This document shows positions 17,149 through 58,982 of a stretch of DNA of 60,559 nucleotides, in pieces. The notes beneath the pieces were generated by a model, which ran no database searches, was not told where the DNA came from, and worked only from the letters and a program-made list of their open reading frames with translations. A program made the position numbers and the translations under genes. Source of the DNA: Mangrovicoccus sp. HB161399 (GTDB lineage Bacteria; Pseudomonadota; Alphaproteobacteria; Rhodobacterales; Rhodobacteraceae); assembly GCF_013184745.1 (NCBI RefSeq), contig NZ_JAATVU010000035.1, positions 1 through 60,559 on the forward strand. Reading direction: 5' to 3'. How positions within the stretch are numbered: the first letter of the stretch is position 1; every line of letters starts with the position of its first letter.

Positions 17149-17155
17149 TTTGCAG

Positions 17156-18169: not shown

Positions 18170-18234
18170 TGTTTTGGGGCAGGGACTTGATGTCTTGCCT
18201 GGCGGCTTTGTGGCCGGGAAAAGAGGAATAGCCC

Positions 18235-32200: not shown

Positions 32201-32561
32201 GATGGAAACAGGCATTTTCTTGGCCTTGAAAGATATCTGCCATCCGCCCCCAGCCCTGAACAATCCTGAGGCGGCGCTCTCCAATTTCGCGCAGGAAGCT
32301 GTCAAAAAGCACGAGGCTGAAAGGCAGCCATTCGATCTTCGCTCACAGTATACGCCTGCTTCGTTCGAGAAATTCTTCGACGGTATCCGTGGGTTGCTAG
32401 ACGCGCCACTTGTGGCGGCAGAGCATGTCCTTGGGCTGCTGCCGCATCCGCCAGATACCGAGACCGCCGTCGCGCTACTGCATTATCGGCTGCACGACCC
32501 CGACTATTTCGAGACGGCAATGCCCGCCGCCATCGCCCTGATCATTGCCAAGACGAAGTGA
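29244..32561 (+). CDS. druH: Druantia type III protein DruH (STY4851/YjiT-like)
   Basis: A 1105-residue protein with no enzyme motif that I can identify. The call rests on its length, its position directly before a DruE-type helicase with a 4-bp overlap, and a general similarity to the large YjiT/STY4851-type proteins that pair with such helicases. Two-gene DruH-DruE units define Druantia type III anti-phage systems. The C-terminal third is helical; the middle is beta-rich. The ATG at 29244 is used, without a clear ribosome site, 19 bp after the helicase gene. It ends at TGA 32559-32561. Confidence 0.78.
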   Translation: MPDACDTHFPTGTPAPCQHLFDKIGLAYRSGQPLHAYRLRDDAVDLLQTHLVEAIKRRRLNEYAAVFVLWSAETFRREFDGGQYTWAFLTDRLNSTPEALDLQHIVQRGLTWFGRKLTRTEHGTTYYLKTLAAEGGLPEALLADTEGNTRRLVRGLLAEIDKVGPGAPEEVLDALTAQRAQALPMGFRTPEFQTLLREFCLLLLARKSEIPPGIPPGARQSWLDANRPGWKDALPLRIDSTAAQSLLYEAVRTENSAGRDTIATRHLVRVEDRWVPKLRIAQFAELPDWMMGLDEPGRLRSVRFLPDTDLAQQAPGLVLSAYREADSRSWEVRRDGSLRRAEIAMPLDAPVAFRLVAEGQLMGTHVPPGCEVQGDDDIPTIWAAEEKDPDGKVQSLRKLGASAQRTKAPHLWVLAQDGTARFEDLEATVDSRIGTATLWRVTGKGVVINSAGRIPIATAAEDEATDSLMARAASVPGLRDKNRSEFLRGLPTFQVLTVDGTGRRLTRKQMCWRAAGQKNWKKGLPDAATCLGTYQFCWMEEHGGLRAFTTVRLIPDQAQIVLIDCHDGFYECRTTGLPAGTVVSLGQGVSGMVPANGVMTLRMGDAASVLGRIPLHIRPPEDGARAFDATLPRPGDRGHFIDAEDRILQSDIELDLGSLRGWRIDAPTDRKAELRLRLQGEHNPRKPILLSVTNETSLSALLPRLRGLMAIGGPDSELRMRIMVGSTQSHRITLRRHLRSGEWNSEAFRLGLDNEAVSPGGLEVEAVNISAPSLSTTIPALHPGESPMPLLPEHPGPWMIFARDAEGLVRPPRPLEKTLSGEAIPAPRFSDEMLSCGQYRHRNERIAAFGKALRGLLSIQGMGDLGLYEEQLDVLGEGEALSSLDSVVALSDAPELACLLLLRARPEALGARLELESVSPFSWTTLPLNAWCKALSAQEAALFSQLLHSGLPEGDARNYSRKAVADRLRQILDRRPEIAGQIFLAAMETGIFLALKDICHPPPALNNPEAALSNFAQEAVKKHEAERQPFDLRSQYTPASFEKFFDGIRGLLDAPLVAAEHVLGLLPHPPDTETAVALLHYRLHDPDYFETAMPAAIALIIAKTK

Positions 32562-32566
32562 CGACC

Positions 32567-35500
32567 ATGAAAAGCTCAGGCTACGGCGCCACCCTTTCCA
32601 GCATCGCAGCCCGCGCGGCCTCCGCCATTGTCGCGCGCGGCAACATCCGGTCGGATGCGGCCCGCGCGATGTTGCTGCGCCGCCTCTCCGCCGCTCCCGG
32701 GCAGGACGACAGCCTGATCGCGCCGCCCGTCTACGAGGCAGCCCGCATTTGGCAAGCAGCCGAGCCAGACATGGCGCAGCTTTCCGGGGCACTGCTCCGG
32801 CCTGATCTCGTCAATGCGCTGGACGAAGCAGGCGCCGAGGCAATCCCGAAGGACCGCCACCCCTACTGGCACCAGCACGAGGCATGGAAATCCGCTGCCG
32901 CCCGGCGCAGCTACATGGTCACCAGCGGCACCGGTTCGGGCAAGACGGAATGCTTCATGGTCCCGATGCTGAACGATTTGCTGAACTGCGCCGAAACTGG
33001 TGCGCGGCACGGCGTGCGCGGGCTCATCCTCTATCCTCTGAACGCGCTGATCGACTCGCAGCGGGAGCGGCTCGGTGCCTGGATCGCCCCTTTCCACGGG
33101 CGGATTTCGTATGCGCTGTACAACGGCGACACTCCGGAGACGCGAAATCCGAACAAGCGTCCTGCTCCTTCTGAAATTGCCGATCGCAAGAGCTTGCGCA
33201 AGACACCCGCGAACCTGCTGGTGACCAACGTCACCATGCTGGAATACATGCTTACTCGGGCGCAGGACCGGGGCATCCTTGAACAATCGCAGGGCCAGCT
33301 GCGGTGGATCGTCCTCGACGAGGCGCACAGCTACGTCGGAGCCCAGGCCGCCGAAATGGCCCTGCTGCTGCGGCGTGTCCGGCAAGCTTTCGGCGTCAAG
33401 CCCGAGGACGTTCGGCTGGTCGCTACCTCCGCCACAATTGGCGAAGGTCCCGATACCACAAAAGCGTTGAAACGCTTCGTCGCAAGCCTCGGCGGCGTCG
33501 ATCCGGAACAGGTCGACATCATCATGGGGCGCGAAGAACCTCTTTCCCTTCCGACAACTATTGCTGACGGACCAATCGAGGCAATCGGCGACACGCCAGA
33601 GGCGCTCTGGTCGGCCCTTGCACCGCATCCCCGTGCGCAGAGGGCCCGCGCCATGCTGCGCGCGGGCGGCGCGCGCCTAGACCGCCTGGCGCAAGTTCTC
33701 GTGCCCGAGACATGCAGCGCTTCGGAAGCCGAAATCATTCTCGACGCAATGGCACAGGCTCAGCAGGCGCCAAACCTTCCACCCCTGTCGCCATGGCGGC
33801 TCAATGCTTTCGAGCGCTCGCAGGCCGGACTCTGGGCTTGCGTCGACCCAGCTTGCACACAGCGCGCGCCCGAGCTTTGCGCAGAGGGCAGCGACTGGCC
33901 CTATGGCCAGATCCACCTGTTCCAACGCGAACATTGCAGCTGCGGCGCCCCGGTGTTCGAGATCGGCTCCTGCTCCGATTGCGGTACGCCTTGGCTTCTG
34001 GCCCACGAGGAAATCGGCAAGCAGCGGATTTTGCGCCAGTCAGTCACGGACACCGAGGAGGACGATTTCCGTCTCGACGTTGAACCGGGCGAAGATGGCG
34101 AAGGTGCCGTGGTCGGTGAAGCCTGCCTTATCGGTCCCGCAGACGAGGCGCATCCGATGCATCAGTTGCGCCACACCGATGCAGTCGTACGGGATGTCGA
34201 GACCAGTGAGCCGGGGCACAGCACCATCCGCATTTGTTCGCACGAGGACAGGGGCTGCTGCTCGAATGCTCATCATGCCCGCAGCCGAGTTGCGGTGCAG
34301 CGGTTCGGCTCTCCTTTCTTACTGGGCAGTGCAATCCCACAACTTCTCGAGGCGATGCCGCGCCCCGAGGGCATCGACGGTCCCGCTCCGATGGGAGGAA
34401 GACGGCTTCTGTCCTTCACCGACAGCCGCCAGGGCACGGCTCGGTTTGCCGCAAAGCTACAGCAGGAGGCCGAGCGCGGCCTGACCCGTGCCGCCATCTG
34501 GCACGCGGTGCAGGGCAAAGCCGCGGGCGATCCAACCAAGGCCGCCGATCTGCGGTTGAAGATCGCCCAGCTTGAGGCCATCCCGGGAATGGAAAGCATC
34601 GTCGCCGAACAACGCGAGAAGCTCGCCGAAGCCGAAGGCGGCTTTGCTCCGATCCCCTGGAGCGAGATGCTCAACATCCTGGCAGATGTTCCCGACCTGC
34701 GCAGCTTCGGCGGGGAAGTTTGGCAGGGGCGGTCGGCCAGCCACCCGTTCGGCGGCCTGACGCTCGCGAAGGAGCCGGTCGAACTGGCAAAACTTCTCTT
34801 GCTGCGCGAGATCTTCCGTCGCCCGAAACTGCAGAATAACGTCGAGACGATGGGCTTCGCCCGCCTCTGCTGGCCGGAACTCGAACGTCAGATGTCCGAT
34901 GCAGATGTCCCCGCTCCGCTGCGTGAAGCTGGGCATGACGCCACGGTTTGGGTGGCGCTGGGACAGGCAGCAATTGATTTGGCCTTCCGAAACCGGCTCG
35001 CTGTCCAGATGGAGCGCAATCCTGTCGATCTCGCGCACTGGATCTCGCCACGCCAAGCTGTAACACAGGTTGTCGAGCCTGGTCTTGAATTCGATAACGG
35101 CAGTACGAAACGGACATCGCATAGATGGTGGACGGCGACTTCCAAAGCCGGACTTGTTCAGATCATCTATCGACTTATCGGCGGCAGCATTGAATCTTCC
35201 ATTGATCGGGATCGCAGCCAATCCGTGCTGGACGCACTCTGGACAGCGCTTGTCCGTTCGAAGGTGTTGACTCGCGCCGACCCCGCCTGCTGGCAGCTCG
35301 ACTTCACGCGTTCCGCACTGATCGGAATGGAACACGCCTGGCAATGCCCCGTGACCGGCAAGATTCTGCCCTACTCCGTTGCAGGAACAACTCTGAACGA
35401 GCCGTCGGTCGACAAGGCCATGGCCAAGATAGCGCTGCCGCGCCTCCCTATCGCCAGTCCCGCCGGTCTGACTGAGACCGAAAGGTTGGAGGTCGAAAAC

Positions 35501-38500
35501 TGGCTTGCCAATGACGAGACCGTCGCCACCCTGCGCAACAAGGGCCTCTGGACCGACCTGCAAGACCGCGCTGCCGCCTTCGCGCCCTTCCTGCGCGCGC
35601 AGGAGCATTCGGCGCAGATTGATCGCGCAAGCCTCAAGGACTACGAGGAAGCCTTCCGAAAGGGCAGGATCAACATCCTCAACTGCTCGACCACCATGGA
35701 AATGGGCGTCGACATTCCCAACGTCGGCACTGTGGTGAACACCAACGTTCCGCCTGCTCCGTCGAACTATCGCCAGCGCATCGGCCGGGCTGGACGGCGC
35801 GGCGAGCCATGGGCCATGTCTTTCACCTTCTGCAAGGACAAGCCGCTCGACTGGCAGGTATTCCGCAATCCCGAGACATTGCTGCGTGCCGAGATCCCCG
35901 CTCCAGCGGTACGGCTCGACAGCCCGGTGATGACATCACGCCACGTCAATGCTCTGCTGCTCGGCATGTTCCTGCGCCGGGAAGGCGGGTTGAGCATCCA
36001 GACCGCCATAGGCTCTTTCTTCGGTGCGCAAAATTTTCGGCTCGATGACGATCTTCCGCAGACCTGGGTGGAAGGCGCAATGGCCGACCAGTTCCTGTCC
36101 GAGCTCGATAGCGGCTGGGCACGGGAACCGCAGATCGCCGAGGCCATCGCGCTGCTGGTGCGTGGCACCGCGCTGGAGGGCAAGACCAGCCTGCCCGCAG
36201 CCACTGCGACTGCCTTCGCCGATCTCGCGAAGCGCTGGCGCCTGGAATACGAACGGCTCGTGGATGGCTGGCGCGCGGCGTCGCCACGCAGTCCGGAAAA
36301 GGCGTTCTATGCCAACCGCGCAAAACGGATGCGCAGAGAGTTCCTGATGACGGAACTGGCCCGGCGCGGCTTCACCCCCGCCTATGGCTTCCCGGTCGAT
36401 GTGGTCACTTTCGACCATATCGGTGGCGACGGCGGCAAGGGCCCCTCGCGACAGCTCGACATCGCGATACGCGACTACGCCCCGGGCTCGGAAATCGTCA
36501 TCGACGGGCTAGTGCATCGCTCCGACGGCATCCTGCCGGCGTGGAGCAATACCGCTGATGCCGACAGCCTCGACGACCTGCGCAGCCACTGGCGCTGCAA
36601 GACCTGCGCAGCCTTCGGGTTGTCTCGTGAAAACGTGCATGTCTGCCCGCAATGTGGCGATCCCGCAATCAACGGCGAGCTGCTGCGCCCCTCCGGGTTT
36701 CTTGGGCGCCGCAAGCCTCATGCGGGCTACGAGCAGGTGAGCTTCGTCGCGCCGGACCGGCCGCGCGTGTCGAGCGGCGACACGCCCTGGCTCAGCCTTG
36801 CCGACCCTTCTGTCGGTCGGCTTCGGGCATCGCGGCAAGGACATGTCCTGTTCACTGCCCCGGGCCAGCATGGCCACGGCTACGCCATCTGTCTCGCCTG
36901 CGGGCAGGCCGAGCCAGAGACTGGCTCGGCGCAGGACACGCCTCTGTCGCGCAGCATGGCGACGCACTGGCCGTTGCAACCGATCCGCAACAACCCGCGC
37001 CATGACGGCAAATGTCCGGGCGGCGACGAAAGCTCTCGCAAGATACGCCGCAACGTGGTGCTCGGAAACGAGATCACCACAGATGTCTTCGAATGGCAGT
37101 TACGAGATCTCGGCAGCGCCGCCTCGGACCGCTCGCGCGCCATGGCCATAGCAGCTGCACTGCGCGAAGCGCTGGCAAAGTCGCTGGGGATCGAAGCCGA
37201 GGACATGGGCATCGCCTCCGCGCCGAGCCTACTCGAGGACGGCAATCGCGCGATGTCAGTGTTTCTCTTCGACAGGGCCTCCGGCGGTGCGGGCTTTGCG
37301 CCGCTGGCTCAGGATTCGCTGCCAGACATCGTCGACAGAGCCAGCCGCATCCTCGATTGCCCGGCGCATTGCGCCTCAGGTTGCCCCGAGTGCATCCTGC
37401 GCGGCGACCTCCAGTACGACATGGCGCTGATGGACCGCCCCGGCGCCCTTGAAACATTGAACGGCATCCGCGATCGGCTGAAGCTACCCGCTGCGCTCAA
37501 GCTTTTCGGCGAATCTACCCGGGCGCTGCCACAAGCTTTGCCGGACTGGCTCGCACCGCGAATGCGCAGTGGCCACGTAAGCGAGCTTGCTCTCTTCATG
37601 CATGGTGAACCCTCGACGTGGGATTTGCGAGACCTAGCCGCACGGCTCCCTCGCCGGGACGAGGCAAGAGTGGCGCAGATCGTGCTCCAGCACGATGTCT
37701 TCATGCGGCTGGAGATGCCAGAGAAGGTTGACCTGGTGCGCTTCCTTGCCGAATGCGGCGCAAGACTGCACGGTCTGAAGACCTTGCCCAAGCAAGGCAA
37801 AAATCCGGTCCTGTGTCAGTTCCTCTATGAAGGACAGCCACAGGCAGTCGCCGCCCAAGCCGAGGCAAGCGCGGTGCCCGATGGCGGATGGGGGCAACCG
37901 GAGGAGGGGCCGATGCTTCTCGGCACCCGCGAGCCGGAAGATCTTGGGCAACGGTTGTCGGCGGAGAAGCTGGTCCAGTTTAACGAGGGAAATTCCATCC
38001 ACCGCGATGCAGGAACCCAATTCGACCGCAGCGTGGGACATTTCGGACATGCGTTCTGGAAGTTGATCCGCGAGATGCGCCCGCAGCTCGCCCGCGATAT
38101 TCCTCTGGCTGCGGTTACCTACTCTGACCGCTACTTGCGCGCGCCGCTGCCCCTGCGGCTGCTATTCGAGGTGCTGCGTACCATGCCAGATCGGAAGGAA
38201 GGAACTGTGATCACCGTGAACACCGCGGAACAGGACAGGGACAATCGCTTTCTGAGCCGCACCATTGAGGACAACTGGACCGAGGATCGCGTGCGTCTTC
38301 AGACCATGAGGGCGCTCCTGCACGGCGCAGACGTGCGCATCCTGCCCAGGAAACTCTGTCCGCACCCACGCAGTTTCGAGCTGATTTGGCAGGACGGACG
38401 AAGCGCACGCATCCATCTAGACCAAGGCCTCGGAAGCTGGACTGTCCCGAACCGCATGGCACCGCGCTTTGACGTAGAAGACGATCCCCTTAGGCAAGCA

Positions 38501-38581
38501 GCCACGCTGGCGAAGATGTCCTTCGAGGTACGCAACCGCCAGCAAGGTGGCGTCGAAACACCAATCTGGGTGTCATGGTGA
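32567..38581 (+). CDS. druE: Druantia helicase DruE (SF2 helicase with DUF1998)
   Basis: A 2004-residue protein. SF2 motifs: SGTGSGKTE near residue 120, LYPLNAL near 155, VLDEAHSY near 250, VATSATIG near 285, CSTTMEMGVDIPNVG near 1043 and RIGRAGRRGEP near 1071. Cysteine clusters likely to bind zinc lie near 425-475, 1343-1365 (CKTC, CPQCG) and in the DUF1998 region near 1597-1612 (CPAHCASGCPEC). The size and DUF1998 architecture are those of DruE. It is the presumed motor of the Druantia defence complex. I use the ATG at 32567; a GTG at 32558 overlaps the druH stop. All motifs look intact. Confidence 0.88.
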   Translation: MKSSGYGATLSSIAARAASAIVARGNIRSDAARAMLLRRLSAAPGQDDSLIAPPVYEAARIWQAAEPDMAQLSGALLRPDLVNALDEAGAEAIPKDRHPYWHQHEAWKSAAARRSYMVTSGTGSGKTECFMVPMLNDLLNCAETGARHGVRGLILYPLNALIDSQRERLGAWIAPFHGRISYALYNGDTPETRNPNKRPAPSEIADRKSLRKTPANLLVTNVTMLEYMLTRAQDRGILEQSQGQLRWIVLDEAHSYVGAQAAEMALLLRRVRQAFGVKPEDVRLVATSATIGEGPDTTKALKRFVASLGGVDPEQVDIIMGREEPLSLPTTIADGPIEAIGDTPEALWSALAPHPRAQRARAMLRAGGARLDRLAQVLVPETCSASEAEIILDAMAQAQQAPNLPPLSPWRLNAFERSQAGLWACVDPACTQRAPELCAEGSDWPYGQIHLFQREHCSCGAPVFEIGSCSDCGTPWLLAHEEIGKQRILRQSVTDTEEDDFRLDVEPGEDGEGAVVGEACLIGPADEAHPMHQLRHTDAVVRDVETSEPGHSTIRICSHEDRGCCSNAHHARSRVAVQRFGSPFLLGSAIPQLLEAMPRPEGIDGPAPMGGRRLLSFTDSRQGTARFAAKLQQEAERGLTRAAIWHAVQGKAAGDPTKAADLRLKIAQLEAIPGMESIVAEQREKLAEAEGGFAPIPWSEMLNILADVPDLRSFGGEVWQGRSASHPFGGLTLAKEPVELAKLLLLREIFRRPKLQNNVETMGFARLCWPELERQMSDADVPAPLREAGHDATVWVALGQAAIDLAFRNRLAVQMERNPVDLAHWISPRQAVTQVVEPGLEFDNGSTKRTSHRWWTATSKAGLVQIIYRLIGGSIESSIDRDRSQSVLDALWTALVRSKVLTRADPACWQLDFTRSALIGMEHAWQCPVTGKILPYSVAGTTLNEPSVDKAMAKIALPRLPIASPAGLTETERLEVENWLANDETVATLRNKGLWTDLQDRAAAFAPFLRAQEHSAQIDRASLKDYEEAFRKGRINILNCSTTMEMGVDIPNVGTVVNTNVPPAPSNYRQRIGRAGRRGEPWAMSFTFCKDKPLDWQVFRNPETLLRAEIPAPAVRLDSPVMTSRHVNALLLGMFLRREGGLSIQTAIGSFFGAQNFRLDDDLPQTWVEGAMADQFLSELDSGWAREPQIAEAIALLVRGTALEGKTSLPAATATAFADLAKRWRLEYERLVDGWRAASPRSPEKAFYANRAKRMRREFLMTELARRGFTPAYGFPVDVVTFDHIGGDGGKGPSRQLDIAIRDYAPGSEIVIDGLVHRSDGILPAWSNTADADSLDDLRSHWRCKTCAAFGLSRENVHVCPQCGDPAINGELLRPSGFLGRRKPHAGYEQVSFVAPDRPRVSSGDTPWLSLADPSVGRLRASRQGHVLFTAPGQHGHGYAICLACGQAEPETGSAQDTPLSRSMATHWPLQPIRNNPRHDGKCPGGDESSRKIRRNVVLGNEITTDVFEWQLRDLGSAASDRSRAMAIAAALREALAKSLGIEAEDMGIASAPSLLEDGNRAMSVFLFDRASGGAGFAPLAQDSLPDIVDRASRILDCPAHCASGCPECILRGDLQYDMALMDRPGALETLNGIRDRLKLPAALKLFGESTRALPQALPDWLAPRMRSGHVSELALFMHGEPSTWDLRDLAARLPRRDEARVAQIVLQHDVFMRLEMPEKVDLVRFLAECGARLHGLKTLPKQGKNPVLCQFLYEGQPQAVAAQAEASAVPDGGWGQPEEGPMLLGTREPEDLGQRLSAEKLVQFNEGNSIHRDAGTQFDRSVGHFGHAFWKLIREMRPQLARDIPLAAVTYSDRYLRAPLPLRLLFEVLRTMPDRKEGTVITVNTAEQDRDNRFLSRTIEDNWTEDRVRLQTMRALLHGADVRILPRKLCPHPRSFELIWQDGRSARIHLDQGLGSWTVPNRMAPRFDVEDDPLRQAATLAKMSFEVRNRQQGGVETPIWVSW

Positions 38582-38777: not shown

Positions 38778-39743
38778 TCAAACCAGGGAGGTTGCGGACG
38801 GTTCCAAGAGCCGGAGAATTGATGCATAGTCCGCCCGGGAATTGATCGGCACCAATGTCGGTCCCTTGGCGCTCTTCACCTGCGCAAATTTCTGCAGCCC
38901 GTCTGGTCCTGTTGCCAGCAGTGCATTCGCGCCGAACACCGGATCGGACGCCTCTGCCGTTGGCGGAACGAGGTAGGCGATCACCCTTGGCTGATCGCAT
39001 GCCTCGGCAACCGTGAAGCGCGAGCCGCCATCAACCGGGCTCTGGACTAGCAGCAGGGCATGAGAGAGACCAGCCTGGAGGCCGCAGGAGGCAATGACCG
39101 CATACTGATCCTCGCGAGCGCCGGGGGCAGCATCCGTAACTAGCAGGCCTCCGGCCTCCAGCACGCGCGTCGCCCGCGTGACAATCCGCTCCGGTGCAAG
39201 CTTCTCCTCGATCAGATCGAGACCCGCCGCCATCACAGCCACCGCCCCAGGAACAATCTCTCCTTCTGGCTTCATGCTGCAGATATCGATGCCGTCCGCG
39301 AGCCCATTGCAGATGGAAACGCCATGAGACGAGAAATGTGCTCCGATCCGGGCAGCCGCGACCTCGCCGATCCGCGTAGGCTTGCGGGTACCGATGACCC
39401 CGAGGGTCGGTCGCTCGAGCAGCTCCGCCCGGCCCCGGCAATACAGCACGGCCGGAGGCTTGCGCATTTCCAGCAACCGAGCAGGATAGGCTGGATCAAG
39501 CATCGACAGCGCCACGATGCCGACCTCTTCGCATCGTGCCATGACACGGTCAGCCTCACCCAGCCCAGCTACCCACTCTGCCTCACCTGCCTTCTTGCCG
39601 ATGACGGGAGCCAGCGCCTGGAAGATGTCCGGCTCTGACATGGCCGCGCGGATCTTTCCCAGGCTCTTCTTCATGGTCGCCGGACCAATGCCCCGCAAAC
39701 TGCTCAAAGCCAGCACAATGCGGAGGGTGTCGTCTTTGCTCAT
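38778..39743 (-). CDS. DprA/Smf-like Rossmann-fold protein (SLOG superfamily)
   Basis: A 321-residue protein. Residues about 1-80 form a helix-hairpin-helix N-terminus (LRGIGPATMKKSLG), followed by the PPAVLYCRG and GVIGTRKPTRIGEVAAARIG strands and the CNGLADGID nucleotide-binding loop seen in DprA. Later segments (VAVMAAGLDLI, SHALLLVQSPVDGGSRFT) fit the DprA Rossmann core but deviate from the RecA-loading family. Classical DprA protects incoming ssDNA; SLOG relatives in defence islands sense or process nucleotides. Its ATG overlaps the stop of the upstream HAD-ComF gene (ATGA), so the two proteins are coupled. Confidence 0.82.
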   Translation of the reverse strand: MSKDDTLRIVLALSSLRGIGPATMKKSLGKIRAAMSEPDIFQALAPVIGKKAGEAEWVAGLGEADRVMARCEEVGIVALSMLDPAYPARLLEMRKPPAVLYCRGRAELLERPTLGVIGTRKPTRIGEVAAARIGAHFSSHGVSICNGLADGIDICSMKPEGEIVPGAVAVMAAGLDLIEEKLAPERIVTRATRVLEAGGLLVTDAAPGAREDQYAVIASCGLQAGLSHALLLVQSPVDGGSRFTVAEACDQPRVIAYLVPPTAEASDPVFGANALLATGPDGLQKFAQVKSAKGPTLVPINSRADYASILRLLEPSATSLV

Positions 39744-41017
39744 CCGATGTTTCCCACCCAGCCGCATCCCTTGCCTCTATATTCAGGAGGTACACAACTG
39801 TAGAAGGCACCGCCATCCTTCTTGCGGTACCTGATCCGGACTGTCCCGGCCTTGCCGCATCTCGGACAGGAGCGTTCGATCGGAACGTCGTTCACAAGAA
39901 AAAATAGGGCCACGAACAACACGTTGCGCGCACCAGCTTCCAGAAGCATGTCGGCGTGTGCCACGGCCGTCGCTCCGGTCGTGTATTGGTCGTCGAAGAC
40001 AATCACGCTCTTGCCATGCAAGTTAGCCGCCGGATCCAGACGGACGAACTGTCGAACGAACTTGGTTCGGTCGTCCCTTTTGGGCTGGTGACGTATGCTC
40101 CCCTGCACATCAGGGAGCCATGAGAACAGTTCGGCCTTGGGCACGTCGACATCGAGAGCCTGGAGGAAATTTGCCATCTTCCGCGGCGGCTTGGTCGTAG
40201 TCTTGTCCGCAACGCAAGTCGCGAGATCCCAGGAAAACTTGCCTTCGGTCAGGACCTCCTCCCGCAGGTAAAGGCTGACATCCCGCGAGATCCGGCGAAG
40301 AAAATCATCCGTCCGATCCTCGCTCTGGAACTGGCGGGACCTCATGCGCGCGCCGTAGGCATCACAGGGCCCCTGTTGCTCGCGAGCCAGCGCTCGGATC
40401 ACCGTGACGCCATCGCGCCAGTTTTCGTCTGTGCGCAGCCGAGCCGATGACCGGCCTTTCGGGTCCTCGAGGACGTATCTTTTCTCCGCAGGGTTATCAA
40501 GGATGCCCAAGACCTCGTCGAAGGAGCGGCAGTAATAGGTAGCCCCCTCCTGAATTCGTTTTGCGCGGTCACTGGAAGGATCTGGCTGATCCCGGTTGGG
40601 CGCTCCATAATGCCACAGGTCGAGCATAACCGACGGTATCCAGAGCCCGCGCGCCAGCTGCACATCCAGTTTTGTATCACCGACGAACAGGAACTCTTCC
40701 GGCACATGCTGTAGCGGAAAGCCCATGCGCTCGGCGAGAAAGCTGCGTAGATTCGCGATGTTCGGCTTATCCGCCAAAGCAAGCCAGGGCAGGCCGAAAC
40801 GCTCCTCGGCAACGCGGCCGACATAGGCACCATGTGAATCCGAGACGATCAGGATGCTGTCGCAGCGCTCGCGAAGCGTCTCCACGAACTCTTCGGCGCC
40901 CGGGATGGACGGGATGTCGGCCAAGGAAAACTGACGATCCCGACCGTGCTTGATGTCGTGGAATTTGCAGGAGTTCGTGTCGACAAGCGTACCGTCGAGA
41001 TCCAATAGCAGATGCAA
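39740..41017 (-). CDS. HAD phosphatase fused to ComF-like phosphoribosyltransferase and zinc ribbon
   Basis: A 425-residue multidomain protein. Residues 1-150 are a HAD hydrolase (DLDGTLVDT near residue 6, IVSDSHG near 56, GDTKLDVQLA near 112). Residues about 240-380 resemble a type I PRTase of the ComF kind, with the PRPP loop VIVFDDQYTTGATA near 337. The C-terminus is a zinc ribbon (CPRCGK, then YSC and GCGW). The only start that keeps the HAD motif is a TTG at 41017, with AGGG upstream. It is first in a two-gene unit with the DprA-like gene. Likely chemistry: nucleotide or phosphoribosyl metabolism; the substrate is unknown. Confidence 0.82.
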   Translation of the reverse strand: MHLLLDLDGTLVDTNSCKFHDIKHGRDRQFSLADIPSIPGAEEFVETLRERCDSILIVSDSHGAYVGRVAEERFGLPWLALADKPNIANLRSFLAERMGFPLQHVPEEFLFVGDTKLDVQLARGLWIPSVMLDLWHYGAPNRDQPDPSSDRAKRIQEGATYYCRSFDEVLGILDNPAEKRYVLEDPKGRSSARLRTDENWRDGVTVIRALAREQQGPCDAYGARMRSRQFQSEDRTDDFLRRISRDVSLYLREEVLTEGKFSWDLATCVADKTTTKPPRKMANFLQALDVDVPKAELFSWLPDVQGSIRHQPKRDDRTKFVRQFVRLDPAANLHGKSVIVFDDQYTTGATAVAHADMLLEAGARNVLFVALFFLVNDVPIERSCPRCGKAGTVRIRYRKKDGGAFYSCVPPEYRGKGCGWVGNIG

Positions 41018-41147
41018 AGAAGACCCTGGAACAATTGAAACCAGACCGAACCCTCAGGGTTCGGGAAGTCGGCCGGGCGCGTGACGCGTGCCGGCACATT
41101 CTGTCCGCGGCGCGGCTGCAGAGAGCCGCCGCCTAAGTCAATGCAGA

Positions 41148-43226
41148 TCAGCTTTCTTCTGGCATGCCAGGCGCCTGCGCTTCAGTGTCGAGCGATGCGA
41201 TCAGCGCAGCGAGTTCTTCTTCTTCAAGGAAGCCGGACATCCTGAGCCAGCGGGCCGCCTCGTCCGGATCCGGCCCAATGCCGTCACCCTTCCAATAAGC
41301 ACAACCCAAAGAAAATTGAGCGACCTTGCTGCCCTGCTCCGCAGCCTTGCGGAACCAGAGCGCCGCCTCTGCCAGATCGATTTCTGCTCCCTCTCCCTTT
41401 TCATAAGCGCGAGCAAGAAGTAACTGTGCAGCCAAATATCCCTGCTCCGCTGACAAGCGGAACCAATGCACGGCCTCATCCGCATCTTGATTGAGGCCGT
41501 CTCCTTTTTGATAGGCGAGTCCAATGCGGAACTGGGCAAGAGCATATCCCTGCTCGGCCGCAAGCCGGAACCAGCGAGCGGCCTCCGCAGCATCCTGATC
41601 GACGCCGGAACCCTCCTGATAGGCACAGCCCAGGAACCACTGAGCCAGCATCTCCCCTTGTTCTCCGGCAAGGCGGAACCAGCGGGCGGCCTCCGCGGCG
41701 TCCTGATCGACGCCGGAGCCCTCCTGATAGGCTAGGCCCAGAGACATTTGGGCGTGAGAATGCCCCTGCTCAGCGGCAAGTCGGAACCAGCGCGCAGCTT
41801 CCGCAGCATCCTGATCGACGCCGGAACCTTCCTCGCAAGCGAGACCCAGATACCACTGGGCAATTGCATTCCCCTGCTCGGCGGCAAGTCGGAACCAATT
41901 CGCAGCCTCCTCCGCGTCCGGACTGACGCCATCGCCCTTGTCATAGGCGAAACCCAGATCAAGCTGGGCCGGGATATGCCCCTGCTCTGCAGCCAAACGG
42001 AACCAGCGCACAGCCTCGGCTGCGTCCGCCTCGACACCGTTTCCGTGCATGAGGCAAATGCCGGAATAATGCTGGGCAGAGGCGTCCCCCTCTGCGGCCA
42101 GTTCCAGAGCCTCGCGCCGGAAGTCCAGACTGCCGTCTGCAAGCGTCCCGCTAGCAATCCCTCTCGCGAACACCTTGGCCAGAAGGTCTGCTGTTCCGTC
42201 GAGGCAAACCTGAAGATCCGGGGAACCGGCGAGACCTGCCAACTTTGAGAAGGCTTCCATCCGCTGCCCGGCCATTTCGAAAAGACGGCCTGCTTTCGCC
42301 ATATCCCGCTCGACACCTCTACCCATCACATGCATGAGGCCGAGGAGGCCCTGTGCCAAGGGCTGGCCCTGAGCCGACGCCTGATCCAGCCATCTCGCCG
42401 CTTCGGCATCATCCTCCGGCCCATTGTCATTGGCGAATGCCGCAAATCCCGCCGCTACAGCTGCCAAGCCGTGGCCTGCTGCTGCCGCTTTCCGGCACCA
42501 GATCAGAGCCCCAGCCCGATCACCATCGGAGAGAAGCTTGGCACTCAGGAAAAGGCAGGCATCCGCATCGCCTTGGTCTGCAAGAACAATGAGGGCCCGT
42601 TGGAAATGCACATCATCTGCATTGTCAGGTAGACCCGCAGCAATCACCGCCGTGACGCGCACTGTACCAAGAAGGAAAGCCGCCACCTCTGGTAGAAGTC
42701 CCGTCTGCTGACCCGTGGAGCGGCATTTCTTCGCGAAGTCCTCGCCCTGTTCCTCCGCCAGCGCGAGGAGCCTCTCCGCCTCGGTCAGGTCCCTGTCGAC
42801 ACCAACCCCTGCAGCCAGCATCATCCCGAACAGGGATTGAGCTTCTTTCTCCCCTTTCTCAGCAGCCACCGCCAGCCAATGCGCCGCCTCGACAGGGTCT
42901 GCAGTGCCTCCGAGGCCAATGAGGGCAATGACACCCAGCCTAGCCTGGGCAGGCGCGTAGCCCTTTGCAGCCGCCTCGAGCAAAAGCGGCCTCGCCTCGC
43001 CCAGCCCTTCGCCATTGCGGCTTGCCCCAAGATGCAGCCCGGCCAGAGACGTCAGCGCGACCTCACTCCCAGCCGCGACTGCATTCGACAGCCAGTCAGG
43101 TGCCACGACCTCGCGGCCCCGTCCCATTTCCAGCGTCATGTCCCCGAGCAGGGAAAAAAGGTCGCCGATAGCCTCTTGGCGTTTCGAGCTTCCGTCCTGG
43201 TCCCCAGATTTCCTGTAGCGCAGCAT
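41148..43226 (-). CDS. Sel1-like repeat protein
   Basis: A 692-residue protein made almost entirely of Sel1-type (TPR-like) repeats of about 36 residues, for example AAEQGHSHAQMSLGLAYQEG followed by SGVDQDAAEAARWFR. At least twelve repeats can be counted; those at about 41560-41890 are near-identical at DNA level. Sel1 solenoids are protein-interaction scaffolds. No signal peptide is seen, so it is probably cytoplasmic. I use the ATG at 43226; the open frame extends a further 14 codons to a TTG. It follows four small genes on the same strand and may be their final cistron. In defence islands such scaffolds often partner with effectors, but the role here is not shown. Confidence 0.88.
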   Translation of the reverse strand: MLRYRKSGDQDGSSKRQEAIGDLFSLLGDMTLEMGRGREVVAPDWLSNAVAAGSEVALTSLAGLHLGASRNGEGLGEARPLLLEAAAKGYAPAQARLGVIALIGLGGTADPVEAAHWLAVAAEKGEKEAQSLFGMMLAAGVGVDRDLTEAERLLALAEEQGEDFAKKCRSTGQQTGLLPEVAAFLLGTVRVTAVIAAGLPDNADDVHFQRALIVLADQGDADACLFLSAKLLSDGDRAGALIWCRKAAAAGHGLAAVAAGFAAFANDNGPEDDAEAARWLDQASAQGQPLAQGLLGLMHVMGRGVERDMAKAGRLFEMAGQRMEAFSKLAGLAGSPDLQVCLDGTADLLAKVFARGIASGTLADGSLDFRREALELAAEGDASAQHYSGICLMHGNGVEADAAEAVRWFRLAAEQGHIPAQLDLGFAYDKGDGVSPDAEEAANWFRLAAEQGNAIAQWYLGLACEEGSGVDQDAAEAARWFRLAAEQGHSHAQMSLGLAYQEGSGVDQDAAEAARWFRLAGEQGEMLAQWFLGCAYQEGSGVDQDAAEAARWFRLAAEQGYALAQFRIGLAYQKGDGLNQDADEAVHWFRLSAEQGYLAAQLLLARAYEKGEGAEIDLAEAALWFRKAAEQGSKVAQFSLGCAYWKGDGIGPDPDEAARWLRMSGFLEEEELAALIASLDTEAQAPGMPEES

Positions 43227-43294
43227 GGGCGTACATCCGTCCAAACGATTGTTACTTTTATATTTCAATCCGCCAGAGCCAGTTGCTCCGGAGA

Positions 43295-44854: not shown

Positions 44855-45223
44855 TCATACACCGAGCTTGCGCGCAGCTGGACGCAGGCTGATCTGCAAG
44901 GCGGCGAGTTTCTCTGGGGGCATGGCCTGCGGATCCAGATATTGCAGCCAGGCCAGTAGGTCGTCCTGCCGTGGCCGCCCGAAAGCGAGCCAGTACACCG
45001 CCACTGATCGGCGCAGCCAAGCCAGACGTCCAACTTCCCGGCTGAACGGAGGCAGGGGAACTACGCTCTGCATCCGGGCATCCCCTTCGAGAATCCACCA
45101 GGGCGGTCGGGCGACTGCATCAGGTCGATCCACACGGTGGAGGCGGGTCCGGCCTTGCGCCCCGCCACCAGCGTGAAAGTTCCCTTGTGTCTTCCCGCTT
45201 GCCATTACGTCGCAGAAAGCCAT
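44855..45223 (-). CDS. Doubtful hypothetical protein (122 aa), possibly a remnant
   Basis: The last 65 residues read like real protein (LAWLRRSVAVYWLAFGRPRQ, DDLLAWLQYLDPQAMPPEKL), with a helical leucine-rich pattern; the first half is low-complexity and may be spurious. No ribosome site and no family recognised. It lies alone upstream of the divergent membrane-protein gene. It may be the degraded end of a longer gene. Confidence 0.35.
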   Translation of the reverse strand: MAFCDVMASGKTQGNFHAGGGAQGRTRLHRVDRPDAVARPPWWILEGDARMQSVVPLPPFSREVGRLAWLRRSVAVYWLAFGRPRQDDLLAWLQYLDPQAMPPEKLAALQISLRPAARKLGV

Positions 45224-45287: not shown

Positions 45288-46913
45288 ATGCAGATATCTA
45301 GTTATACCGCCCTCACCAGTAAAATTGACCGGCTTCATGGCAATCTTATGTTACTGGCTCCGGTAGGAATTGTTTCTCTAATATACATTCTGACTAGGGA
45401 AATAAATGGCGATTCTGTCCCTATTTACGTTTCTCTAATATCTGGCACCTCATGGTTGTACGTATTACGAACATGGCTAAAATATAAATTCCTCTCCAAA
45501 AGGAATATCGACTACAAATCTTGTCAACGGATACTCCAACGAGCAAATAATGACGACGATATTTTCTTCCTGCGCCGAGCAATAAAAGACTTGGACACTG
45601 GCCGTGGGAAGGACGTTTTGGTAGAGGAAATGGTGAAGAATGACCTTCCCGCACTCCGAAGAAAGTTGGATCTTTTGGAAGATGAAGAAACGCGCAAGGA
45701 ACGGGAAGAGGATTTAAAAGCCTGCTTTTCATCAGCGAGAGGCAGAGTCAAAACGCAGATGGAAGGCCTAAGAAGCTCCTCAAGAATAATTCGCGCAAGA
45801 AATCAAGTTATTGCCGCGGTTGAAAATGCAAAAAGGCAACGACAGCAACTCGGGCGCGACGTCGACGCGCATGTGGCGAAACTGTCTTGGTGGAACCAGC
45901 TTACCTTTGATTACCCAGACTATAGGGAAATGGATCGGCAAATTGATAAGCTGCAGACAGAGGGGAACAGCTTCCTCTGGAGAAATAGGTCTGAAATATC
46001 GAAGGCAGATAACGCCTTCCAAGAAATGGAAGTGCGAGCACTCCAGAGAATTGACATCGCAGAAAAAGCGTCGATTTCCGCCATACCGCACCGTCGCTCT
46101 ATTAGCTTTGAGGAGCGCAAAATGGCGAGCAGCGCCTTGTTGCTTGGAGCCCTGTCGGTTCCCGTTTCAGCGTGGAATGACATTTCACGTTCCGGACAGG
46201 TATATGACGCCCTCAGATCAGTGAACGGCAACTATGCAGGCATGAGTGACACTGAAATTTGGATGCAGTGCCTGCTTCTGCCTCCGGATAGCCTGCTTGG
46301 GCTGGCATCCCTGACCAAAGGCGCCCTGTTTGAAGGTCATGTCGCCGGTACAACCGGTGGAAATCTGCACACCAACTTTAATTTCCCAGAAACGGATATC
46401 GTGATCGATGGTACTGCCTACCAGATCAAGGCTACTGACAGCGAAAGCTACATCGCCACAGTTGACCCCGACATTCCGGTGATCGCCACAAGTGAAGTAG
46501 CGGAAAGGACCGATGCCATCGACGGAGGACTCTCCAACGCGGAGCTCGAATCCTGGACCGAGCTCGCCTTGGGAGGTACGGTCATTGACCTTGGAGATAC
46601 GGCGATCGACGCGGTCATGGCCGGACTGGGGGGGCTAAGCGTCCTCGCAACCATTCGCGGCATCAACCATGCAGCTGCGCGGCATAGGGCCGGGATTGAC
46701 GGCATTGATGCGATTGCGGAGGGTGTTGGAGTGGCCGTGACCGGCACAATGAAGGCTACGGTGGATCTCGCGGAAACGGGCTACAAGATCGCGAAGTCCC
46801 GCCCTAGCCGCTTTGTGGGGCGGCAGGTAATGCGTGGCCTAGGTGCCGTGGGGCGTGCCATTGATGGGCCTTCCGAAGACGAGGGTAAGGTTGACGACAG
46901 CCGCAAGCGTTGA
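45288..46913 (+). CDS. Membrane-anchored coiled-coil protein with putative PD-(D/E)XK-like motif
   Basis: A 541-residue protein. Two transmembrane helices lie near residues 18-36 and 45-62 (LMLLAPVGIVSLIYIL; VPIYVSLISGTSWLYVL). A charged, mostly helical coiled-coil region follows (about 75-290). Residues about 345-395 contain LTKGALFEGHVAG, FPETDIVIDG and YQIKATDS: a glutamate, an aspartate and a QxK spaced as in restriction-endonuclease-like folds. A C-terminal part rich in Gly/Ala helices (430-510) could insert in membranes. The first 800 bases are AT-rich, unlike the rest of the plasmid, which suggests recent acquisition. No family name can be given; a membrane-tethered effector is inferred. 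Confidence 0.75.
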   Translation: MQISSYTALTSKIDRLHGNLMLLAPVGIVSLIYILTREINGDSVPIYVSLISGTSWLYVLRTWLKYKFLSKRNIDYKSCQRILQRANNDDDIFFLRRAIKDLDTGRGKDVLVEEMVKNDLPALRRKLDLLEDEETRKEREEDLKACFSSARGRVKTQMEGLRSSSRIIRARNQVIAAVENAKRQRQQLGRDVDAHVAKLSWWNQLTFDYPDYREMDRQIDKLQTEGNSFLWRNRSEISKADNAFQEMEVRALQRIDIAEKASISAIPHRRSISFEERKMASSALLLGALSVPVSAWNDISRSGQVYDALRSVNGNYAGMSDTEIWMQCLLLPPDSLLGLASLTKGALFEGHVAGTTGGNLHTNFNFPETDIVIDGTAYQIKATDSESYIATVDPDIPVIATSEVAERTDAIDGGLSNAELESWTELALGGTVIDLGDTAIDAVMAGLGGLSVLATIRGINHAAARHRAGIDGIDAIAEGVGVAVTGTMKATVDLAETGYKIAKSRPSRFVGRQVMRGLGAVGRAIDGPSEDEGKVDDSRKR

Positions 46914-47079: not shown

Positions 47080-47748
47080 CTATCCCGGCAGCCTCATCTC
47101 GGCGCAGTGCACCTGGCCCTGCTGCGGCACCACGAGCCGGAAATGCCTGCATTGCAGCACATCCAGCACGCCGCTCGGACGGTAGGATACCCAGTTCGTT
47201 CCCCCGGCATGGCGCACGCTGTCATAGACGATGCCTGCATGGGGCCCGGCACGGACCGTGCGGGAAAACCCCTGGGTCGAGGGGTAGCTGGCCGGATCGG
47301 GGTCGTGAAGCTCCGGGTGCGTGCCCCGGATATCGACGAAATCGCCTGCCAGATTGGCCGTGTATTCCCGCATCTCCTCGGTCTTCTGCTGCAGGGCGCT
47401 CAGCGCGATCTCCCCACGGATGCCGTTGGCAACCTCTACCACCGCCGTCTCGAGAGAGCTGGCAGCGTACCACGCCCCGAGCGCAGCATCGGCAAAGCGC
47501 GTTCCCTGCGGCGCGCCATGCAGGAAGGCGGCCATCACCACGCTTGCATTGGGACGGCCGTAGACCCATTCGGCCTGCGGGAGCCGCCTCAGCCGTGTCG
47601 CCACGAGGCGGTCATTTGTCCAGCCTTCGAGTTCCATCACGGCCTCCAGATCTTCGGGCCGCGTCACGGCCTCGAAGGCGTTGACCGGCGGGAACCGGGA
47701 CGGGATCAGCCGGTGGGTCCGGTCCGGCGCCGCAGCAAGGCGCGTCAC
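47080..47748 (-). CDS. RES-domain toxin
   Basis: A 222-residue RES-domain protein (for example RLIPSRFPPVNAFEA, ASVVMAAFLHGAPQGTRFAD, SSLETAVVEVANGIRGE and the C-terminal GVLDVLQCRHFRLVVP). Characterised RES toxins either degrade NAD or ADP-ribosylate a host enzyme, and are neutralised by an Xre/MbcA-type partner. The start is the GTG at 47748, which overlaps the antitoxin stop (GTGA). The same frame remains open to 48660, but the upstream part is antisense to nothing known and overlaps the antitoxin, so I reject that longer version. Confidence 0.88.
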   Translation of the reverse strand: MTRLAAAPDRTHRLIPSRFPPVNAFEAVTRPEDLEAVMELEGWTNDRLVATRLRRLPQAEWVYGRPNASVVMAAFLHGAPQGTRFADAALGAWYAASSLETAVVEVANGIRGEIALSALQQKTEEMREYTANLAGDFVDIRGTHPELHDPDPASYPSTQGFSRTVRAGPHAGIVYDSVRHAGGTNWVSYRPSGVLDVLQCRHFRLVVPQQGQVHCAEMRLPG

Positions 47749-48242
47749 GAGAAGACGACATCCTGCGCGCGGACCGGCTCGAAACCGGCGCCGCCGCGCA
47801 GCCCCCCGCGCCATGCATCGAGATAGCGCCGCACCGTGAGGATGCCGTCGAGACCTCCCCCGATCATCACCTCGACCGGGGCCTGGCCGCCGAACACCTC
47901 GCCATGGTGCGGCCCCTTGAGCCAGGTCATCCCCTCGGCCTCGATCGGGAACAGGATGCCCAACGCCTTGTGCACCCCGAGGACCCCGGAGATCCGCGTC
48001 AGGGTGTCCAGAGGCAGCATGAGCGGCGCCTCCTCCCGCGCCTTCCTGACCCACTCGAAATAGGTCGACCGGGAGGGTTCGCCCAGAAGCTCGATCTGGT
48101 CCTGGGTCGCAATGCCGTACCGCTCGGCAATCGCGAGGAAAGTCCGCAGGCCCGGTCCGCTGACGCGGCGGCGCGCGGCCTGATCGATGGTCTGCGGCAC
48201 CGGCTCTGCGCCCGGCTGTGCCGGAAGCTGAAGAATTTGCAT
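47745..48242 (-). CDS. Xre/MbcA/ParS-type antitoxin
   Basis: A 165-residue partner of the RES toxin. It has an N-terminal Xre-like helix-turn-helix (about 35-95, FLAIAERYGIATQDQIELLG) and the C-terminal toxin-binding region of the DUF2384 type (TLTRISGVLGVHKALGILFP, then MTWLKGPH). It binds and blocks the toxin and, with it, represses the operon. I use the ATG at 48242, preceded by GGAGA 5-9 bases away; an upstream in-frame start at 48290 would overlap the promoter. It is coupled to the toxin by a 4-bp overlap. Confidence 0.88.
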   Translation of the reverse strand: MQILQLPAQPGAEPVPQTIDQAARRRVSGPGLRTFLAIAERYGIATQDQIELLGEPSRSTYFEWVRKAREEAPLMLPLDTLTRISGVLGVHKALGILFPIEAEGMTWLKGPHHGEVFGGQAPVEVMIGGGLDGILTVRRYLDAWRGGLRGGAGFEPVRAQDVVFS

Positions 48243-48254
48243 GGGCTGTCTCCG

Positions 48255-48272
48255 TATGTATCTGGATACATA
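48255..48272 (-). promoter_or_regulatory. Operator dyad of the RES/Xre operon
   Basis: TATGTATC and GATACATA flank two bases, a perfect 8-bp dyad 13 bp upstream of the antitoxin ATG and covering the predicted -10 box. A second dyad AGTCC/GGACT lies at 48272-48287. This fits autorepression by the toxin-antitoxin complex. Confidence 0.75.
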
Positions 48273-48295
48273 GTCCAAATCCGGACTCAATGCAA
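48267..48295 (-). promoter_or_regulatory. Predicted sigma-70-like promoter of the RES/Xre operon
   Basis: On the minus strand, TTGCAT (48295-48290) and TATGTA (48272-48267) are separated by 17 bases, close to the TTGACA/TATAAT consensus. The -10 lies inside the operator dyad. Confidence 0.6.
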
Positions 48296-48669
48296 GATGT
48301 CACCGACGCTCCTCCCTCGTCTTCAGCCTGGAAGTCAACAGAACCCGCCGCGCCCCGCAGGGCAAAGTTGCCGTCCCGGCCCCGCAGACGGGGGGCGGGC
48401 GATGCTCTGCCGTCGGCCCTGCAGCCACACCCCAGCCCAGCACGCAGGACCGCACCCTGAACAATGGCCCGTCCAGCACTGGCCTTCGAGCGAAAGCGGC
48501 CTTGCCCCCGGATGTGCCCTGTCCGGGGCCTTCCTTCGCGGGGCAGCCTGGGGCCGCTCAGAGGAAAAGTTGCACCCGGCGATATATCCTGCCAGTCTCC
48601 CCAACCCCCAACGCAAAACGCCCTCGGAAGCCGGTCTGGTCGGGAAACCGGGCCGGTCATACTTCGTTA
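48296..48669. other. 0.37-kb GC-rich spacer
   Basis: No gene recognised; several frames are open on both strands through GC-richness alone. Composition resembles the gene-free stretch at 11.2-14.0 kb. It must hold the upstream region of the small gene at 48670. Confidence 0.45.
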
Positions 48670-58734: not shown

Positions 58735-58738
58735 GAAT

Positions 58739-58811
58739 GCCGCACCATTTGCGGCGAATATGCTCGCCATTGCCGCGCAGATCAAGGCAATCGCCGCATA
58801 ACATGCGGCGA
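58739..58811 (-). promoter_or_regulatory. Two TGCGGC-centred dyads upstream of fic
   Basis: TCGCCGCAT/ATGCGGCGA around AAC (58791-58811) is a perfect 9-bp dyad. GCCGCA/TGCGGC around five bases (58739-58755) shares the TGCGGCGA half-site. Both lie directly upstream of the fic start, as expected for an autoregulated operon. Confidence 0.65.
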
Positions 58812-58982
58812 AAAATGGTTCCATTCCCCGCATTCGATGCCCCGCCGCTATCTCCGGCTATTCTCTATCGGATATGGAAGAGTTCGGTGCGCGTAGCGCC
58901 CGTTAGTTCTGCCGCACTTGCATCTCGCCTCGCCCCAACGCATTCCGTTCACATTGAAAGCGGAAATGGCTTTGGGGCAGGC

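What the first reader, a model, noticed from the sequence alone, without database searches (positions are those of the whole stretch)
38778..41017. HAD/ComF-like PRTase fusion coupled to a DprA-like protein: candidate undescribed nucleotide-based defence pair
A HAD phosphatase, a ComF-type phosphoribosyltransferase and a zinc ribbon in one chain are coupled by ATGA overlap to a DprA/SLOG protein. ComF and DprA are both known from natural transformation, yet here they sit in a defence island, divergent in sequence and convergent to Druantia. HAD plus PRTase plus SLOG suggests making, sensing or destroying a nucleotide.
Basis: partly seen in the sequence, partly recalled or inferred. Interest (0 to 1): 0.82.

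Follow-up and report, generated by a model that had tools for sequence, protein, structure and literature searches.

The report
Divergent ShosTA phage-defence toxin–antitoxin pair
The two genes look like a distant version of ShosTA, an already described bacterial toxin–antitoxin pair that protects cells from phages, with the twist that the toxin's phosphatase domain still looks active, whereas the version with solved structures has lost that active site.

Summary
Two overlapping minus-strand genes encode (i) a HAD phosphatase–phosphoribosyltransferase–C4 zinc-ribbon protein (39740–41017) and (ii) a DprA-like SLOG protein (38778–39743/39767). They are convergent to Druantia III on a plasmid-like contig that also carries type III R-M and Zorya I genes. 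"Undescribed defence pair" does not hold: the partner matches PADLOC ShosA (4e-37) and the toxin's PRTase matches ShosT (2e-8). ShosT of the P2-phage type, whose structures are solved (PDB 8zvb–d; ShosA 8zva, 9vzo), is itself a HAD-like–PRTase fusion beside a DprA-like gene, and a P2-like phage DprA/PRTase pair was reported to block T7 and lambda. A Pseudomonas filamentous-phage pair with the window's domain order is deposited as ShosT/ShosA. A DprA-like neighbour was found in 20 of 22 HAD(-like)–PRTase loci examined; the closest complete pair (59%/47% identity) lies beside BREX genes. Of interest: the window clade keeps HAD motifs that the 11 P2-type toxins examined lack, and its antitoxin lacks a His and an Arg kept in the 16 other DprA-like rows compared. 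New variant of a known kind: probably a nucleotide-pool/DNA-damage toxin held by a DprA-like antitoxin. Toxicity and defence untested.

The parts
39740..41017 (-). ShosT-like toxin, 425 aa: HAD phosphatase domain (~1–140; motif I DLDGT, motif IV GDTKLD), linker, PRTase domain (~260–380; PRPP motif DDQYTTG at 342–348), C4 zinc ribbon (~384–420). TTG start at 41017.
38778..39767 (-). ShosA-like (DprA/SLOG) antitoxin, 321–329 aa; N-terminal helical region and Rossmann SLOG domain, without the C-terminal extension of canonical DprA; ATG at 39743 overlaps the toxin stop (ATGA), ATG at 39767 is the alternative start.
41046..41064 (-). Short inverted repeat (8-bp stem, 3-nt loop) just upstream of the toxin start; terminator-like for the upstream Sel1 gene or a regulatory site. 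Not above chance: 3 terminator-like sites found in the stretch, shuffles mean 2.4.

Best explanation
The pair is a divergent ShosTA system: a two-gene toxin–antitoxin module used for phage defence. The toxin (ShosT-like) would use PRPP through its PRTase site and disturb purine nucleotide pools, leading to DNA damage and growth arrest; in this clade an apparently active HAD phosphatase and a zinc ribbon sit on the same chain. The DprA-like partner (ShosA-like) would hold the toxin in check, through contact or through DNA binding and repair, until infection upsets the balance. Shown here: the genes, domains, motifs, homology to ShosT/ShosA, conserved pairing and defence-island setting. Inferred from the prototype: toxicity, neutralisation, phage defence, purine-pool effect. 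Inferred from motifs only: HAD activity in this clade.
For: PADLOC ShosA PDLC03961 4.3e-37 for the partner; ShosT PDLC03962 1.6e-8 over 52 residues of the toxin's PRTase. The P2_4C9 toxin matches PADLOC ShosT PDLC03012 end to end (3.4e-294), carries HAD-like and PRTase matches and follows a DprA-like gene. A DprA+PRTase pair of P2-like phages protects against T7 and lambda (PMC9122126 passage; that the tested pair is this very protein was not checked). PDB ShosT (8zvb, 8zvc with PRPP-Mg, 8zvd with phosphate) matches the P2_4C9 toxin over all 424 residues, and ShosA (9vzo, 8zva) its partner over residues 22–349 and 22–335 of 349. PfAC02a HAD–PRTase–zinc ribbon + DprA is deposited as ShosT/ShosA. 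Window-clade profile against the PfAC02a/Psychrobacter/IMG-VR profile: 98.3%, E 2.3e-14 over HAD, PRTase and zinc ribbon. DprA-like neighbour in 20 of 22 HAD(-like)–PRTase loci against 0 of 11 ComF-sized PRTase loci. The 14 partner DprA-like proteins lie apart from 4 canonical DprA with 100/99 support. Toxin under purifying selection between L032 and L007, dN/dS 0.11. First-ranked PDB entry by E-value is ShosA for one model and ShosT for the other.
Against: The direct link to the structurally solved toxin is thin: window clade against P2-type ShosT aligned only 49 PRTase columns at 58.7% probability, so the tie runs through the PfAC02a/Psychrobacter group. The toxin model is poor (mean pLDDT 53.4), and both models were built from alignments that held P2-type ShosTA rows, which favours ShosTA hits. 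By TM-score the antitoxin model fits canonical DprA 3maj (0.73) better than ShosA 8zva (0.64, rmsd 6.8). The G026 relative has an altered tail and no DprA-like neighbour; G298 keeps only a fragment. The antitoxin lacks residues kept in the other 16 rows. In RqlHI the PRTase domain is necessary but not sufficient alone for toxicity. No activity data.
Confidence: 0.8

Rival explanations
1. PsyrTA/RqlHI-type system: a RecQ-like helicase–PRTase toxin with a DprA-like antitoxin; the window pair would be a helicase-less member of that family rather than ShosTA.
For: PsyrA PDLC03927 matches the partner at 9.8e-21 and PsyrT PDLC03928 the toxin PRTase at 0.0093. An E. coli plasmid gene next to a DprA-like gene fuses HAD, DUF559-type and helicase domains. 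RqlH toxicity needs its PRTase domain and RqlI restrains it (PMC4670107 passages).
Against: No helicase match in the 425-aa toxin; ShosA scores higher than PsyrA (126 against 72.3 bits) and ShosT higher than PsyrT (32.7 against 12.3 bits). ShosTA and PsyrTA may be branches of one superfamily, so the line is partly a naming matter; PsyrA was not in the tree.
Confidence: 0.08
2. A signalling module: HAD and PRTase make a nucleoside-like messenger (as proposed for Ter systems) that the SLOG protein senses or destroys.
For: HAD and PRTase in one chain with a SLOG partner; Ter systems are described as using PRTases and HAD enzymes for signal biosynthesis (PMC7824862 passages); HAD motifs are intact in the window clade.
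Against: TerD not found in the host genome at E<=0.001; related PRTase/DprA-like pairs are described as toxin–antitoxin systems; the gene upstream of the pair differs between window and L032, so no third gene is seen to be conserved next to it in these two.
Confidence: 0.07
3. Competence or DNA-uptake genes (ComF/DprA) displaced into an island.
For: ComF- and DprA-type matches.
Against: Both score below the curated comF and dprA cut-offs; the host has a separate DprA over the cut-off and a separate ComF-like gene (itself below the strict comF cut-off) elsewhere; partner DprA-like proteins group apart from canonical DprA and the window one lacks the C-terminal extension seen in those rows.
Confidence: 0.02

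Closest known systems
ShosTA of the P2-phage type (P2_4C9; PADLOC PDLC03012/PDLC02997; PDB 8zvb–d, 8zva, 9vzo)
   Same: HAD-fold N-terminus fused to a PRTase, adjacent DprA-like gene without the canonical C-terminal extension; phage defence reported for a P2-like phage pair
   Different: Gene order antitoxin→toxin there, toxin→antitoxin here; P2-type HAD lacks DxDxT and GDxxxD motifs and has no CxxC zinc ribbon; antitoxin sequence signature differs
ShosTA of Pseudomonas phage PfAC02a (OR790968), and the Psychrobacter plasmid pA3H5 pair
   Same: HAD with intact motifs + PRTase + zinc ribbon, toxin→antitoxin order; PfAC02a is deposited as ShosT/ShosA
   Different: About 19–22% toxin and 25–26% antitoxin identity to the window; two CxxC ribbons instead of one; antitoxin keeps the His and Arg-x-Arg signatures
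Halocynthiibacter pair (L032)
   Same: Closest complete pair found: toxin 59% over nearly full length, antitoxin 47%, same order and overlap, convergent with BREX brxL/pglZ
   Different: Different defence neighbours; the upstream gene is a PDC-M72B-like protein, not Sel1
PsyrTA / RqlHI
   Same: PRTase toxin with DprA-like antitoxin
   Different: RecQ-like helicase in the toxin, not found here

Membership tests
ShosTA | DprA-like antitoxin of the ShosA family | tested here: met
   PDLC03961 4.3e-37, 126 bits, against PsyrA 72.3 bits and the canonical dprA model 99.5 bits, cut-off 191.15
ShosTA | PRTase toxin of the ShosT family with a PRPP motif | tested here: met
   PDLC03962 1.6e-8 over 52 residues only; full-length profile match to the PfAC02a/Psychrobacter/IMG-VR group, whose PfAC02a and Psychrobacter members match PDLC03962 at 1e-17 and 8.9e-12; direct match to P2-type ShosT weak
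ShosTA | Two genes adjacent and co-oriented | tested here: met
   Overlapping minus-strand genes; pair kept in 20 of 22 loci
ShosTA | Toxicity neutralised by the antitoxin; phage defence | not testable with these tools
   Needs expression and phage challenge
PsyrTA/RqlHI | RecQ-like helicase domain in the toxin | tested here: not met
   No helicase match in the 425-aa toxin
Canonical DprA (competence) | Score over the TIGR00732 cut-off | tested here: not met
   99.5 bits against 191.15; the host has another copy over the cut-off
Canonical DprA (competence) | C-terminal extension present in the canonical rows | tested here: not met
   Absent from the window protein in the alignment of 18 rows, 4 of them canonical; that the extension is a winged helix is recalled
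ComF | Stand-alone ComF over the TIGR00201 cut-off | tested here: not met
   26.8 bits against 233.55, matching residues 309–370 only, and fused to HAD; the cut-off is strict, 2 of 14 control genomes pass it
Ter system | TerD in the same genome | tested here: not met
   No match in the own genome at E<=0.001; the control rings in 2 of 14 genomes

The most novel reading that the evidence does not exclude
In the window clade ShosT is a two-enzyme toxin: the PRTase makes (or breaks) a nucleotide with PRPP and the intact HAD phosphatase removes the phosphate at once, making an irreversible drain of PRPP and purines, an arrangement that the P2-type ShosT has lost from its HAD domain. Its ShosA, without a His and an Arg that the other DprA-like rows keep, would restrain the toxin by protein contact rather than by DNA binding.
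Probability: 0.2. Interest if true: 0.55.

Novelty: new variant of a known kind. Interest (0 to 1): 0.36.

Why it matters
It extends ShosTA to a divergent alphaproteobacterial branch that PADLOC's toxin model barely sees, and it shows that the toxins examined split into members with an intact HAD active site (11 of 22) and members without (the 11 P2-type ones, the type with solved structures). That makes the role of the HAD domain directly testable: compare HAD-dead and PRTase-dead mutants of an intact-HAD ShosT. The antitoxin's missing DprA residues likewise allow a test of whether DNA binding is needed for neutralisation.

Tried and rejected
Viral-collection searches with the window toxin, the PfAC02a toxin, the Psychrobacter toxin and the L032 antitoxin found no relatives; searches with the A3 profile and the P2 toxin found 2 and 10 loci. 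Plasmid and phage searches with the window toxin found 0 and 1 records. Genome samples with the window toxin alone: a match in 12 of 61 relatives at E<=0.001, nearly all PRTase-only, and in 3 of 390 of the order at E<=1e-12 (G000, G026, G298). With the toxin profile (398 genomes of the phylum, list cut; 394 of the family) most rows were lone HAD or lone PRTase matches; in the family sample I see both domains in one frame in 3 of 394 (G000, G026, G959), a lower bound because at most 4 candidates per genome were scored. The toxin fold model is too weak to argue from (mean pLDDT 53.4). Promoter and terminator scans gave nothing clearly above shuffles. Window–L032 dN/dS for the toxin could not be computed because synonymous sites are saturated. 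The Sel1 gene upstream (41148–43268) was considered as a third component and rejected: it is not upstream of the pair in L032. Ter-type signalling and competence were considered and rejected (see rivals). I make no claim that the intact/lost HAD split is unpublished: Pu et al. 2025 could not be read.

Full report
What is there. The window holds two overlapping minus-strand genes: 39740–41017 (425 aa, TTG start) and 38778–39767 (329 aa, with an internal ATG at 39743 that gives an ATGA overlap). The first has a HAD hydrolase domain (PF00702 4.3e-6), PRTase-type matches around 324–372 and a Top1-like zinc ribbon around 382–408, the latter two below their cut-offs; the second is DprA-like (PF02481 3e-33). 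Motifs DLDGT, GDTKLD, DDQYTTG and CPRC are present. The pair is convergent with DruE (32558–38581, +); DruH and DruE match Druantia III models.

Setting. The window is contig C253 of the host genome, bases 1–60559. It carries a replication initiator, ParB and ParA, so it looks like a plasmid-type replicon. Defence-type genes on it: a type III methyltransferase and a restriction-like gene, a UvrD-type helicase, Druantia III, a PDC-M72B-like protein, Zorya I ZorA/ZorB/ZorD and a Fic protein. The host has its own DprA over the curated cut-off on another contig and a separate ComF-like gene, below the strict comF cut-off.

What it is. PADLOC models give ShosA (4.3e-37) for the partner and ShosT (1.6e-8, 52 residues of the PRTase) for the toxin. 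A DprA+PRTase pair of P2-like phages protects against T7 and lambda (PMC9122126, passage). The PDB holds ShosT alone, with PRPP-Mg and with phosphate (8zvb, 8zvc, 8zvd; also 9w2p, 9w2q), matching the P2_4C9 toxin over all 424 residues, and ShosA (9vzo, 8zva) matching its partner from residue 22 on. Phage PfAC02a carries HAD–PRTase–zinc ribbon plus DprA, deposited as ShosT/ShosA (PMC11878078 passages). A review (PMC12593503, passages) summarises Pu et al. 2025: ShosT as phosphoribosyltransferase and pyrophosphatase disturbing purine pools, with DNA duplications, filamentation and death; ShosA binding DNA and probably promoting recombination; T7 Gp0.7 as trigger. I could not read Pu et al. itself.

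Pairing. I examined 22 loci encoding HAD(-like)–PRTase toxins: window, L032, L007/L021, L019, L044, L045, L023, L025, L026, L024, L114, L027, L046–L055. A DprA-like gene is adjacent in 20 of 22 (window; the rest). The two misses are G026 (L021, 16 kb searched, no DprA-like gene; its tail also differs; the genome's only match is a DprA elsewhere) and L050, whose contig begins at the toxin. The loci were found by similarity, not drawn at random, and several are close copies (L027, L046 and L054; L044 and L045, 6483 of 7317 positions alike). Of 28 plasmid records I fetched 5; four are among the 22, and the fifth (L115), a HAD–helicase fusion with an adjacent DprA-like gene, is not counted. As a control, 11 ComF-sized PRTase loci from the same genome scan have no DprA-like neighbour (0 of 11; some flanks are short). 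Besides the 22, G298 holds only an N-terminal fragment. The nearest complete pair, in Halocynthiibacter (L032), has 59% / 47% identity, the same order and overlap, and sits convergent to BREX brxL and pglZ.

Kinship. A tree of 18 DprA-like proteins puts the 14 partners on one side of a branch from 4 canonical DprA (100/99) and window with L032 (100/100); the forks joining the partner groups are weak. Only 4 canonical rows and no PsyrA were included. Toxin profiles: window clade against PfAC02a/Psychrobacter/IMG-VR 98.3%, E 2.3e-14, full length; that group against P2-type 97.2%, E 3.4e-11, HAD part; window clade against P2-type directly only 49 PRTase columns, 58.7%. So the link to the structurally solved toxin is transitive.

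Two features set the window clade apart from that toxin. First, HAD motifs I and IV are intact in 11 of 22 toxins (window, L032, L007, PfAC02a, L044, L045, L023, L025, L026, L024, L114) and not found in the 11 P2-type ones, whose N-termini read IFS(I/L)xDV in place of the DxDxT motif and whose consensus has GRS in place of GD; CxxC ribbons occur in 9 of the former 11 and in none of the latter. The HAD part is under purifying selection between L032 and L007 (dN/dS 0.07 for HAD, 0.07 for PRTase). Second, the antitoxin: the His after GxD and the first Arg of R-[DN]-R are kept in 16 of 18 rows and absent from window and L032; the second Arg is Gly in the window but kept in L032. That both members share the losses suggests a changed function rather than decay; dN/dS of the antitoxin pair is 0.21, with nearly saturated synonymous sites.

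Structure. The antitoxin model is good (mean pLDDT 88.0); its best PDB match by E-value is ShosA 8zva (1.4e-17, TM 0.64), with canonical-type DprA 3maj next and higher by TM (0.73). The toxin model is poor outside the HAD part (mean 53.4); its first PDB match is nevertheless ShosT 8zvb (4.1e-6, spanning 446 columns, TM only 0.24). Both models were built from alignments that contained P2-type ShosTA rows, so these ranks are supportive only.

How it probably works. By homology: a PRTase toxin acting with PRPP on purine pools, causing DNA damage and arrest; a DprA-like partner restrains it; phage infection releases it. [quoted passage not shown] The part special to this clade compared with the P2 type, an active HAD on the toxin, is inferred from motifs. 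Toxicity, neutralisation and defence were not tested.

Verdict. Observation confirmed; 'undescribed' rejected; filed as a divergent ShosTA, new variant of a known kind. Kimelman et al. 2012 and Sberro et al. 2013 were not read; I know them from citations in PMC9122126 and PMC4670107 and from recall.

Noticed in passing
window 45288–46913 (+); L032 4144–5835 (+): A 541–563 aa protein matching PDC-M72B lies in both islands (241 of 505 aligned columns identical), directly upstream of the toxin in L032 and 4.3 kb away in the window. It has a stretch that looks to me like a PD-(D/E)XK nuclease core and no Pfam match at 0.01. It was found in no other of the 117 sequences held.
   Followed up: partly
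window 50088–57574 (−): Zorya type I genes: ZorA (55511–57574), ZorB (54516–55511) and ZorD (50088–53327); 53324–54682 lies where ZorC would be but has no PADLOC match at 1e-4.
   Followed up: no
window 57571–58833 (−) and 47080–48660 (−): A Fic protein (SoFic 3.3e-39) next to ZorA, and a RES-domain protein (PF08808 1.2e-22): further toxin-like genes in the island.
   Followed up: no
window 17150–19850 (+): Replication initiator (RPA), ParB/RepB and ParA in a row: the contig is probably a plasmid or secondary replicon.
   Followed up: no
L021 7073–8374 (G026): An orphan relative (58% to the window, 84% to L032) with intact HAD and PRTase motifs but an altered zinc-ribbon tail and no DprA-like neighbour: a ShosT-like toxin without its antitoxin, perhaps disarmed.
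   Followed up: partly
L115 3018–8432 (E. coli plasmid pLAO18); L024 4075–6707 (Klebsiella plasmid): DprA-like gene followed by HAD fusions: in L115 HAD + DUF559-type + DEAD helicase (about 1,560 aa annotated, cut in the locus), in L024 HAD + weak PRTase + a PvuRts1I/DUF559-like tail. These may bridge ShosTA and PsyrTA.
   Followed up: partly
NC_021784.1 / AB823818.1 (phage phiOH2), about 21023–22883: A PRTase match (21023–21376) and a DprA-like match (22353–22883) lie about 1 kb apart on the same strand: another possible pair of this kind. Not fetched.
   Followed up: no
window 44855–45223 (−): A 122-aa ORF matches only positions 942–1017 of a 1019-position ZacC model (3.2e-17): a possible remnant.
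   Followed up: no
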